From assembly GCF_003053845.1 (NCBI RefSeq), contig NZ_QAYG01000001.1:874078-938077 (forward strand): a DNA stretch of 64,000 bases, given 5' to 3'. Position numbers and translations under genes: made by a program. A model generated the notes under the pieces. The model had not been told where the DNA came from. It saw only the letters and a program-made list of their open reading frames with translations, and did not search any database. Position 1 is the stretch's first letter, and each line of letters opens with the position of its first letter. The stretch is from Breoghania corrubedonensis. GTDB lineage: Bacteria; Pseudomonadota; Alphaproteobacteria; Rhizobiales; Stappiaceae. Shown here piece after piece: positions 38,718 to 54,488 of this stretch.

Positions 38718-39552
38718 TATAACTTGGAGATTTATTTGAAATGCTTATAACGAAATATTGCACACCTGACGCCAGACAACATATTCTCTCTGGTAATTTC
38801 AAGATCGGCTCATTGTCAGAATATAGAAGTTCTGAAGCTGGTGGAGGACTAATGGCAGATCGAGGAGAAGGGATGGGAGAAATTGGCCTGGCTGGAAATT
38901 CGCTTATCCGTTCCGGTCGATTTGGTTCCTTTAATTTCTCGAATGTAGGCCTATCAGGCGATAGGCCATTCTTCACACAAGGATTTTCAATAGATGCGCA
39001 CGTATACTGCACCTCAGTTGGCGGATACAATCGAGACACGCACATGAATATTCGAAATGGAACAAGATCGTATTGTGCAAACCCTAATTACAAATCTTTT
39101 ATTGTTTTGGATCTAGATTATCTAATTAAAGCCTTCGAAGAAATAAAGTATTCTATGAATAAAGATGACACTAATATATATAATGGAGAAGTTAGGTATT
39201 GTTCGAGAGAAAAGGTGATTAGAAGTGAGAATTCAAATGTCAACTCAAGTGGCAATGATGTAGAAATGCATATGAAAGATATAATATTTATTAAACAAGA
39301 TATTTTTCAAGTTGAAAATGAATATAGAATATCTATTTTTAGTATAAATAACGATAAATTATTGAAGAGTGTATATACAAGAGATATGAGCGAGTATATA
39401 CAGAAATTATTTGTGCGTTCGATAGTAGACAAAGGTGCAAATCTCGAATAAAATGTGAAATATATTTTTGAAATTAAAATGTAAATATTGATAAATTATA
39501 CTTTCTTGCTTTATGATTAAAGTAATCATCACCTTTCGAAAGAAATATAGCT
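38718..39552 (+). other. AT-rich compositional island 1
   Basis: From just after the MoeA/MobA-like gene to the L,D-transpeptidase start the sequence is strikingly AT-rich, with poly-A/T tracts and a perfect 7-bp inverted repeat ATGATTA-AAG-TAATCAT at 39513-39529. It holds one gene. No integrase, transposase, tRNA or obvious direct repeat flanks it. Confidence 0.75.
38741..39451 (+). CDS. Orphan AT-rich gene, hypothetical protein
   Basis: A 236-residue protein I do not recognise. It has no signal peptide or membrane helix. The N-terminus (ITKYCTPDARQHILSGNF, then IGSLSEYR and ADRGEGMGE) and the late block IIFIKQDIFQVENEYRISIF distantly suggest DUF2971-type proteins, in which a Tyr-Arg segment, an early acidic-Gly motif and a late E-Y-R strand are found; this is weak. 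Codon use is very different from its neighbours: 14 of the 60 bases at 39121-39180 are G or C, in a GC-rich chromosome. It sits alone directly after the molybdenum operon. Horizontal acquisition is likely; an anti-phage or toxin role is possible but not shown. Confidence 0.7.
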   Translation: MLITKYCTPDARQHILSGNFKIGSLSEYRSSEAGGGLMADRGEGMGEIGLAGNSLIRSGRFGSFNFSNVGLSGDRPFFTQGFSIDAHVYCTSVGGYNRDTHMNIRNGTRSYCANPNYKSFIVLDLDYLIKAFEEIKYSMNKDDTNIYNGEVRYCSREKVIRSENSNVNSSGNDVEMHMKDIIFIKQDIFQVENEYRISIFSINNDKLLKSVYTRDMSEYIQKLFVRSIVDKGANLE

Positions 39553-51426: not shown

Positions 51427-53010
51427 ATGCTGTCGACGGTGATCAATCTCGTCCGCCTTCTGCATGCGGGCTACGTGATGGCGCGCGAGGGCGTGTTCGG
51501 GCTGGTGGAACTGCCCGACCTGCCACCGGGCCCCCGCCTCGCCCTGCGCCTCATCCGTCTGATCGAGCGCAAGTCCGCGCGCCGGGCGGATGCGGGCGCA
51601 CGCATTTCCGTCGCTTTCAACCGGCTGGGCCCCTCCTACGTGAAGATGGGCCAGTTCCTTGCGACACGGCCGGACGTGGTCGGGCGCGAGGTCGCCACCG
51701 AGCTTTCGCTGCTGCAGGACCGGCTTGAAGCCTTCCCGCGCGACGAGGCGGTTCGCATGGTCGAAGACGCGCTGGGCGCCCCGATCGACCAGCTCTTCAC
51801 CGACTTCGGCGAGCCTGTCGCCGCCGCCTCCATCGCCCAGGTCCATCCGGCTTTCATCGAGGATGAGGACGGCGAGACGCACAAGGTCGCGGTGAAGGTG
51901 CTGAGGCCCGGCGTCGCCCGCCGTTTTGCCCGCGACCTGCAATCCTTCTATCTGGCAGCCCACATCATCGAACGCTTCCACGCGCCCTCGCGTCGACTGC
52001 GCCCGCTCGCCGTGGTCGACACGCTGGCGCGTTCGGTGGAGCTGGAGATGGATCTCCGGCTGGAAGCCGCGGCACTTTCGGAGATGGCGGAAAACACGGC
52101 CGACGATCCCGGCTTCCGCGTGCCGCAGGTCGACTGGACGCGCACGTCCAAGGGCGTATTGACGATGGAATGGATCGCCGGCCGCAAGCTCTCCGACGTC
52201 GACGGCATCGCGGAGGACGGGCACGATCTGGTGGCGCTGGGCGCGAATGTCATCCAGAGCTTCCTGCGCCATGCGCTGCGCGACGGCTTCTTTCATGCCG
52301 ACATGCACCAGGGCAATCTCTTCGTCAGCGAGGAGGGCGACCTCGTCGCCGTCGACTTCGGCATCACCGGCCGGCTCGACAAGGCGGAGCGCCGCTTCCT
52401 GGCGGAAATCCTGTTCGGCTTCATCACCCGCGACTACATGCGCGTGGCGGAAGTGCATTTCGAGGCGGGCTACGTGCCAAAGACTCAGGATGTCGGCGTT
52501 TTCGCCCAGGCCATCCGCGCCATCGGCGAACCGATCCACGGCCACAAGGCTTCCGATATCTCCATGGCGCGCCTGCTCACCCAGCTTTTCGAGGTGACCG
52601 AGCTTTTCGCCATGACAACCCAGCCGCAGTTGATCATGCTGCAGAAAACCATGGTGGTGGTGGAGGGCGTGGCCCGCTCGCTCGATCCCGGCCTCGACAT
52701 GTGGAAGACGGCGGAACCGGTGGTGCGCACCTGGATCGAGCGCAATCTCGGCCCCGCCGGACGCATTCAGGATGCGGGCGAGAGCCTCGCGACGCTTGTG
52801 CGGCTTGCCGGCGAACTCCCCATGCTCGCCAAGCGCGCGGAACGCATCGTGGAAGAGATCGATACGATGACGACGCGCGGCGTAAAGGTCGAGCCCGACA
52901 TGATGGAGGCCTGGGCGCGCGCGCGCTCCAGGAGCAACCGGCTCGGTGCTGTCGCGATGTGGGTCATCGCCGTGGCGCTGGTCGCGATCGTATTCGAGGG
53001 GTGGTGGTAG
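51427..53010 (+). CDS. ubiB: 2-octaprenylphenol hydroxylation accessory protein UbiB (ABC1/ADCK kinase-like)
   Basis: An atypical kinase/ATPase of ubiquinone synthesis. The UbiB family signature KMGQFLATRPDVV (KxGQ motif) lies near residues 79-90, with the Ala-rich loop AAASIAQVHPAF, ELDLRLEAAALSEM, DGFFHADMHQGNLF (catalytic loop) and VAVDFGITGRL (metal-binding DFG). One membrane helix at the C-terminus (VAMWVIAVALVAIVFEGWW) anchors it. Length 527 residues. coaBC and dut often follow in relatives; here an AT-rich island begins about 60 bases on. Confidence 0.95.
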   Translation: MLSTVINLVRLLHAGYVMAREGVFGLVELPDLPPGPRLALRLIRLIERKSARRADAGARISVAFNRLGPSYVKMGQFLATRPDVVGREVATELSLLQDRLEAFPRDEAVRMVEDALGAPIDQLFTDFGEPVAAASIAQVHPAFIEDEDGETHKVAVKVLRPGVARRFARDLQSFYLAAHIIERFHAPSRRLRPLAVVDTLARSVELEMDLRLEAAALSEMAENTADDPGFRVPQVDWTRTSKGVLTMEWIAGRKLSDVDGIAEDGHDLVALGANVIQSFLRHALRDGFFHADMHQGNLFVSEEGDLVAVDFGITGRLDKAERRFLAEILFGFITRDYMRVAEVHFEAGYVPKTQDVGVFAQAIRAIGEPIHGHKASDISMARLLTQLFEVTELFAMTTQPQLIMLQKTMVVVEGVARSLDPGLDMWKTAEPVVRTWIERNLGPAGRIQDAGESLATLVRLAGELPMLAKRAERIVEEIDTMTTRGVKVEPDMMEAWARARSRSNRLGAVAMWVIAVALVAIVFEGWW

Positions 53011-53119
53011 GGGAGCGCACCGCTTGGAACTACACGGAGATCTCGCCAACCTTGTATGTTAGTTAATTCCTGACGTAATCGAATCTTGGTTGGACGGTAG
53101 CAGAGGGAGGGGGGCACGC

Positions 53120-53401
53120 ATGACGCTGAAGCAAATTTGGGACGGGCTTATCAAGCTAAATACCATTTTTGCGCTGGCTAGCAATATCTATACAGTCGTA
53201 CCAACTGCTATCCTCTTTAGTATATTTGTAACTTCTATAACTAAATTAAATGGAATTACGGGAAATTTTGGATTTTCTGGCTATGTAATCATATTCTTGA
53301 TTATATTATTACTTTTAATAACGACATTCGAGAAAATAAGAAAGCTATCTCCAAAGCGTAATAATGTTTCGAAATATGACTTAGGACCATTTTTTCAGTA
53401 A
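53120..53401 (+). CDS. Small two-helix membrane protein, unknown
   Basis: A 93-residue protein with two predicted membrane helices (about residues 15-38 and 51-69, the second nearly all Ile and Leu) and a short basic cytoplasmic tail (EKIRKLSPKRNN). ATG 53120 has a very strong GGAGGGGGG site upstream, which favours real translation. I do not recognise a family. It may be the membrane half of a larger protein whose soluble half is the next ORF, since a T6 tract lies exactly at the frame break. Confidence 0.6.
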   Translation: MTLKQIWDGLIKLNTIFALASNIYTVVPTAILFSIFVTSITKLNGITGNFGFSGYVIIFLIILLLLITTFEKIRKLSPKRNNVSKYDLGPFFQ

Positions 53402-53403
53402 AA

Positions 53404-53802
53404 TTGAAACCAGAAAAAATAAATTTTGATGTGGCAATTCTCATTTTTTCTGGAATATCAATAATAGATACTAGTGCAGCAAAGCGTCTACTGCAAAAAA
53501 TCTATGAGAACAATATTCCCGTATATGGATCCATATTTTCTATGCCAGAAAATTTAGTCGATCATTGGGTTGAAGTTGACTTTGGACCTGAGCATAGGAT
53601 ACCGAACGACAAAATTACTGAATTAAAAATAACAGCAATGCCAAGAGAGTATTCGTCTGCAGCAATTTATGGGTCTCTATATTTTGAGGACCAAGAAAAG
53701 AAAAAATATGGAAGGCTAACTGTAAATATATATGACATACTAGTTATTTATGATTTTAATTTTTCAATGCTAAAGAAAGATTATCCAGATTTTTTTAGCT
53801 AA
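53404..53802 (+). CDS. Small soluble protein, unknown; possible frameshifted continuation
   Basis: A 132-residue frame starting TTG 53404, immediately after the previous stop; the frame is open from 53380. It has no signal or membrane helix and no motif I recognise. The mixture of hydrophobic strands (DVAILIFSGISII, LTVNIYDILVIYDFNF) and charged loops suggests a compact alpha/beta domain. A -1 shift in the T6 run at 53390-53395 would join it to the membrane ORF, giving a protein of about 230 residues. Whether this is one gene, two genes, or a decayed gene cannot be decided here. Confidence 0.5.
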   Translation: MKPEKINFDVAILIFSGISIIDTSAAKRLLQKIYENNIPVYGSIFSMPENLVDHWVEVDFGPEHRIPNDKITELKITAMPREYSSAAIYGSLYFEDQEKKKYGRLTVNIYDILVIYDFNFSMLKKDYPDFFS

Positions 53803-53819
53803 TTATCGTTTTTTTATAG

Positions 53820-54488
53820 TTACACAGGCACTTTCCTCACCCGCCTCAACGTCAGATTGATCCGCCCGCCGTCTTTCAGCAGAGTCGAGGTTCCCGGATA
53901 GATCCGGTCCACCCCGTGAAAGACCGTTCGCGCCTCGCCTGCCAACAGCACGATGTCGCCCGAGGCGAGCTTGAACGAGGATGTCGGGTCCTTGCGCACC
54001 TGCCCGCCGACGCGGAAGCGGCAGGTGTCGCCCAGCGAGACCGAGAAGACGGGGGCCGAGAAATCCTCCTCATCCTCGTCGCGATGAAGGCCCATGCGGG
54101 CCGTCTCCTCGTAAAAATTGATGAGGCAGGCCTCGGGCTCCGCCGGAAAACCGGAAATCTCCGCCCACAGATCGAGCAGCATTTGCGGAATGGCGGGCCA
54201 TGGCTTGCCCGTTACCGGATGGGCGGACTGATAGCGATAGCCCGCCTCGTCCGCGACCCAGCCCAGTGACCCGCAGTTCGACATTTTCACGCTGAGCGGC
54301 TTGCCGGTGCGCGGCATCACCGGCTGAAAGAGCGGGGCGGCGCGCACCACGGCGCGGATTTCCGCCAGAAGCGCCTCCTGAGCGGAGCGGTCGAGCCGAC
54401 CGGGAAGATAACGAAAGCCCGGCGGCGGACCTTTCCCCGCGCCAGATGACGGATCGGCGGTACGGTCTGATGCGGGACGGGATGACAT
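53820..54488 (-). CDS. alkB: Alpha-ketoglutarate-dependent DNA dioxygenase AlkB
   Basis: Removes methyl lesions (1-meA, 3-meC) from DNA by Fe(II)/2-oxoglutarate oxidation. The dioxygenase core has SVKMSNCGSLGWVAD, CLINFYEETARMGLHRDEDEED (the HxD iron ligands), FSVSLGDTCRFRVGG, VFHGVDRI (second His) and GGRINLTLRRV (2-oxoglutarate-binding Arg). ATG 54488 gives 222 residues, close to the E. coli enzyme; the frame continues to 54665 without family likeness. It is convergent with the AT-rich island. Confidence 0.93.
   Translation of the reverse strand: MSSRPASDRTADPSSGAGKGPPPGFRYLPGRLDRSAQEALLAEIRAVVRAAPLFQPVMPRTGKPLSVKMSNCGSLGWVADEAGYRYQSAHPVTGKPWPAIPQMLLDLWAEISGFPAEPEACLINFYEETARMGLHRDEDEEDFSAPVFSVSLGDTCRFRVGGQVRKDPTSSFKLASGDIVLLAGEARTVFHGVDRIYPGTSTLLKDGGRINLTLRRVRKVPV

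What the first reader, a model, noticed from the sequence alone, without database searches (positions are those of the whole stretch)
53071..53815. AT-rich island inserted between ubiB and alkB
In related genomes coaBC and dut usually follow ubiB. Here the sequence shifts to about 20-25% G+C (13 of 60 bases at 53281-53340) and encodes a two-helix membrane protein with a very strong ribosome-binding site plus a soluble ORF, neither of which I recognise. Small membrane-plus-soluble modules of foreign composition inside core operons are typical of recently acquired defence, toxin or immunity units.
Basis: partly seen in the sequence, partly recalled or inferred. Interest (0 to 1): 0.65.

Follow-up and report, generated by a model that had tools for sequence, protein, structure and literature searches.

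The report
Orphan AT-rich gene insertion, probably broken
An 0.8-kb stretch of foreign, AT-rich DNA sits between two ordinary genes and carries what looks like one membrane-protein gene, with no known relatives and a reading-frame break in the middle; it is a fairly ordinary recently acquired orphan gene whose role cannot yet be told.

Summary
Window 53011-53836 is a compositional island: its core has about 29-30% G+C against 63.5% for the window. With a second island 14 kb away (38.7-39.5 kb), it is one of the two most AT-rich 600-nt stretches in 1.2 Mb of this chromosome. It is absent from both other held species of the genus and from all 86 other genomes of the family searched. It lies between the convergent genes ubiB and alkB, not inside an operon. 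That gap is 7-260 nt in most relatives and carries unrelated, host-like genes in others, so the site tolerates insertions.

The two ORFs are best read as one 227-codon gene: a two-helix membrane hairpin (ORF1) plus a soluble domain (ORF2), joined by a -1 shift at a run of six T. None of 5000 shuffles gives a comparable pair of frames, and ORF2 has no start of its own with a ribosome-binding site. The break is most likely a decay indel; a programmed frameshift, coupled translation or a sequence error is not excluded.

No homologue was found in any collection. The Cap15/CBASS and type III CRISPR effector readings fail the tests made. Defence or toxin function remains an unsupported guess. Verdict: a horizontally acquired ORFan, probably decaying; low to moderate interest.

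The parts
53011..53836 (.). AT-rich inserted island between the ubiB stop and the last codons of alkB; the core 53120-53815 has about 30% G+C
   Evidence: empty site in both congeners
51427..53010 (+). ubiB (left flank, 527 aa, host composition)
   Evidence: 100% of 61 relatives have it
53820..54485 (-). alkB (right flank, convergent with ubiB; its last few codons ...RKVPV differ from relatives, so the right junction lies in its 3' end)
53105..53114 (+). strong Shine-Dalgarno stretch GGGAGGGGGG; GGAGG ends 9 nt before the ATG
   Evidence: read directly
53120..53401 (+). ORF1, 93 aa from ATG: two hydrophobic segments (about residues 16-38 and 48-71), then a basic stretch EKIRKLSPKR, suggesting N-in/C-in topology
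53380..53802 (+). ORF2 open frame (-1 relative to ORF1; 140 sense codons; first standard start TTG at 53404, no SD): soluble domain with mixed helix and strand
53390..53395 (+). run of six T (CCA TTT TTT CAG TAA in frame 0) where the -1 frame change can occur; contains a U_UU.U tetramer
   Evidence: motif class from PMC4066793
53410..53453 (+). perfect 11-bp inverted repeat (CCAGAAAAAAT/ATTTTTTCTGG), 14 nt after the T run; weak hairpin, -12.2 kcal/mol, z about -2 to -2.8

Best explanation
A horizontally acquired orphan gene. A short piece of AT-rich foreign DNA went into the tolerant gap between the convergent ubiB and alkB genes. It carries one gene of about 227 codons for a protein with a two-helix membrane hairpin and a cytoplasmic domain. 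The gene is now split by a -1 frame change at a T6 run, most likely a decay indel, so the main product today would be the 93-residue two-helix membrane protein. Shown: the island, its absence in relatives, the lack of homologues, two overlapping frames beyond chance. Inferred: one ancestral gene, topology, decay. Guess (about 25%): when intact it worked as a membrane-anchored effector or sensor, as in phage-defence or phage-exclusion proteins, the cytoplasmic domain sensing and the hairpin acting on the membrane.
For: Composition. Empty site in both congeners and in the family. Two overlapping frames spanning 226 codons in 0 of 5000 shuffles. GC by codon position in ORF2 is 0.41/0.28/0.23, as expected for AT-rich coding DNA. 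T is 45% at second codon positions of ORF1, as in membrane proteins. ORF2 lacks an SD and an ATG near its 5' end. No relatives anywhere. The same gap holds unrelated cargo in other family members. ORFans as a class have atypical composition and are short, and many come from integrative elements (PMC2718499).
Against: No relative shows the intact gene, so one ancestral gene is inferred from the frames alone. ORF1 has a flat GC profile by codon position (0.32/0.32/0.32). No integrase, repeat or target-site duplication marks the edges, so the route of entry is unknown. Function is not supported by any similarity.
Confidence: 0.6

Rival explanations
1. Two translationally coupled genes, a two-helix membrane protein and a small soluble partner (the first reader's module): ribosomes terminate at TAA 53399-53401 and restart at TTG 53404.
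For: The TTG lies 3 nt after the stop codon, a spacing seen in coupled pairs; ORF2 is a real open frame beyond chance.
Against: TTG start without an SD; the ORF2 frame is already open 24 nt upstream, inside ORF1, which a single frame break explains directly; no relatives keep the two as separate genes.
Confidence: 0.17
2. One gene read in full by programmed -1 ribosomal frameshifting at the T6 run, giving a short hairpin form and a long form with the cytoplasmic domain.
For: U_UU.U is among the shift-prone tetramers in E. coli and in IS elements (PMC4066793); a perfect 11-bp stem follows; the 0-frame stop comes two codons after the T run.
Against: Such tetramers give at most a few per cent even with a strong pseudoknot (PMC4066793). 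The stem is AT-rich, starts 14 nt downstream and is only modestly better than shuffles (z -2 to -2.8). No relatives exist to show conservation.
Confidence: 0.12
3. A sequencing or assembly error of one base at the T run; the gene is intact at 227 codons.
For: The frame break falls exactly at a homopolymer, the commonest place for such errors.
Against: Six T is short for modern short-read errors; the flanking assembly is contiguous (contig of 1.8 Mb). Reads were not available.
Confidence: 0.15
4. A CBASS Cap15-type or type III CRISPR Csx23-type nucleotide-activated membrane effector (two helices plus a ligand-binding domain).
For: Same general plan, N-terminal hairpin plus cytoplasmic domain (Csx23: PMC11014256).
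Against: No match to PF18153 (Cap15) or to any PDB chain. The motifs shared by two true PF18153 proteins (GxYWTDRxTxG) are absent. The genome has no SMODS nucleotidyltransferase and no Cas10 palm match.
Confidence: 0.03

Closest known systems
ORFans of atypical composition in prokaryotic genomes (Cortez et al. 2009, PMC2718499)
   Same: Short, AT-rich, no database relatives, absent from close relatives.
   Different: Lies alone as a one-gene insertion between core genes, not in a cluster of atypical genes; frame-broken.
Cap15 (PF18153, Cap15_CD_rec), CBASS membrane effector
   Same: Two N-terminal membrane helices followed by a cytoplasmic domain; similar length (about 217 vs 227 aa).
   Different: No profile match, conserved motifs absent, no CD-NTase in the genome.
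Csx23, type III CRISPR membrane effector (PMC11014256)
   Same: Two-helix N-terminal domain of about 70 residues plus a cytoplasmic C-terminal domain.
   Different: No sequence match to any PDB chain; C-terminal domain longer (about 135 vs 91 residues); no Cas10 in the genome.

Membership tests
Horizontally acquired ORFan | No detectable homologue in databases | tested here: met
   No relative in Pfam, PADLOC, PHROGs, NCBIfam, PDB, phages, plasmids, viral contigs, genome contigs (pattern scan) or about 1000 genomes of the phylum. Only one weak match (E 8e-4 per genome), which is an ABC permease and at chance level.
Horizontally acquired ORFan | Atypical composition and absence from close relatives at the same site | tested here: met
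Cap15 / CBASS effector | Match to PF18153 domain | tested here: not met
   Pfam scan at E up to 10 gives none; genome search with PF18153 gives none in G000.
Cap15 / CBASS effector | Adjacent or genomic CD-NTase (SMODS, PF18144) | tested here: not met
Type III CRISPR membrane effector (Csx23-like) | Cas10 in the same genome | tested here: not met
   (PF22335, palm domain, none; draft genome of 21 contigs, 100% complete by estimate)
Programmed -1 frameshift gene | Slippery motif with conserved downstream structure | tested here: inconclusive
   U_UU.U tetramer and an AT-rich 11-bp stem present; conservation untestable without relatives.
Toxin-antitoxin or immunity pair | Two separately translated genes, one toxic and one neutralising | not testable with these tools
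   Only sequence is available; ORF2 lacks its own SD start.

The most novel reading that the evidence does not exclude
The island is a compact, self-contained foreign module of a new protein family in which a T6 slippery site sets the ratio between a bare membrane hairpin and a form with a cytoplasmic sensor, acting in phage exclusion.
Probability: 0.04. Interest if true: 0.65.

Novelty: new member of a known kind. Interest (0 to 1): 0.2.

Why it matters
It is a clean, datable case of a single foreign ORFan entering a tolerant spot between core genes, with a sister insertion 14 kb away whose gene resembles a candidate defence protein. If other strains of this species carry the intact gene it would define a new small membrane protein family; as it stands it shows mainly that such orphan genes come, decay and go.

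Tried and rejected
Cap15/CBASS: rejected on profile, motifs and missing CD-NTase. Csx23-like: no Cas10, no sequence match. STAS-like reading of ORF2 (ILIFSGISIIDTSAAKRLL recalls the STAS D-x-S-G helix start) came from memory only; Pfam at E up to 10 does not report STAS, so not pursued. AlphaFold2 on the ORF2 frame alone gave pLDDT 40.8, pTM 0.38 and Foldseek no hit at E below 0.001: uninformative. Weak hits (OAD_gamma, 4HB_MCP, YidC, CARF8 TM part, PHROG 12828) are below cut-offs and fall mostly on hydrophobic segments: rejected. Matches at E about 0.01-1 in the class search and the E 8e-4 match in the order search (an ABC permease) are chance for the number of genomes searched. Rfam: nothing. 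Transposon or integrase origin: no repeats, target duplications or tRNA at the site.

Full report
What is there. Between ubiB (51427-53010, +) and alkB (about 53820-54485, -) the G+C content falls from about 65% to 28% and rises again. In 1.2 Mb of the same contig read in stretches, the two lowest 600-nt windows are this island and another in the same 64-kb window (38.7-39.5 kb), both at 29.0%; only 0.06% of all 600-nt windows are below 36%. The island is single copy in the genome.

Is it coding? ORF1 runs from ATG 53120 to TAA 53401 behind a strong SD (GGAGG 53106-53110). ORF2's frame is open from 53380 to the stop at 53800-53802. In dinucleotide shuffles an open run as long as ORF2's appears in 2 of 2000, and two overlapping frames spanning at least 226 codons in 0 of 5000. 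ORF2 has GC by codon position 0.41/0.28/0.23, the usual order for AT-rich coding DNA; ORF1 has T at 45% of second positions, as in membrane proteins. ORF1 has two hydrophobic segments followed by a basic stretch, which by the positive-inside rule puts both ends in the cytoplasm.

One gene or two? The ORF2 frame is -1 relative to ORF1, and the two overlap only from 53380 to 53401, around TTT TTT CAG TAA. ORF2's first standard start, TTG 53404, has no SD. This is what one gene with a single frame break looks like. Decay by an indel, a sequence error, programmed frameshifting and coupled translation all fit the bare sequence. U_UU.U tetramers are mildly shift-prone in E. coli and need a strong 3' structure (PMC4066793); the stem here is AT-rich and 14 nt away, so programmed frameshifting is possible but not favoured.

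Is it an insertion? In the two other held species of the genus the ubiB and alkB genes are followed by gaps of 260 nt (G002, 66% G+C) and 55 nt (G001), without the island; similarity stops within about 10 nt of the ubiB stop and in the last alkB codons. In 16 of 23 family genomes where both genes were in view the gap is 7-130 nt, and in six more it is 536-1278 nt at 54-62% G+C, holding unrelated genes such as a GFA-like protein, a quinone oxidoreductase, GntR plus OsmC-like genes, a PRC-barrel-like protein or a TetR regulator (my naming by eye from the translations). So the convergent gap is an ancestral, tolerant site with changing cargo. The protein is absent from all 86 other genomes of the family.

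Relatives. None were found in Pfam, PADLOC, PHROGs, NCBIfam or PDB sequences, phages and plasmids by tblastn and blastn, viral contigs, genome contigs (pattern scan, close relatives only), or class, phylum and order samples of whole genomes. The one nominal hit below E 0.001 is an ABC permease, expected by chance over this many genomes. Without relatives the fold could not be predicted (pLDDT 40.8; no fold match).

What it might do. The plan, a membrane hairpin plus a cytoplasmic domain, is shared by effectors such as Cap15 and Csx23, but the defining features tested were not met: no PF18153 match, no SMODS enzyme, no Cas10. A defence or phage-exclusion role is therefore a guess from architecture and company: the second AT-rich island of the window carries a gene with a PADLOC match to candidate PDC-S31 (E 4.5e-5) and a sub-threshold DUF2971 match, is also missing at its site in G001 (295 nt there against 1068 here), and is also absent from the family.

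Verdict. A real, recent, foreign one-gene insertion, probably a decaying ORFan. ORFans with atypical composition are common and often derive from integrative elements (PMC2718499).

Noticed in passing
38718-39530: A second AT-rich island (29% G+C core) with one intact 236-aa ORF (38741-39451, +) between a molybdopterin-type gene and an L,D-transpeptidase-like gene. It matches PADLOC PDC-S31 (E 4.5e-5) and DUF2971 below threshold; absent from all 86 other family genomes, and its site in G001 is about 770 bp shorter.
   Followed up: partly
L034 (G002), gap between ubiB and alkB: In the closest congener the 260-nt gap holds a G+C-rich inverted-repeat element (GATCCAGTACCC...GGGTACCCGCCTGCGCGGGGATGACA), absent from this window; it looks like a dispersed intergenic repeat, another sign that the gap tolerates insertions.
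   Followed up: partly
L012, L014, L015, L030, L031, L032, L152, L156, L159: The ubiB-alkB convergent gap carries different small cargo genes in different family members, a minor integration or gene-turnover spot.
   Followed up: partly
G000:C1:777651-779850 and 639851-640500: Two further low-G+C stretches in the first 1.2 Mb; the first contains a 154-aa ORF with an N-terminal membrane or signal segment.
   Followed up: no
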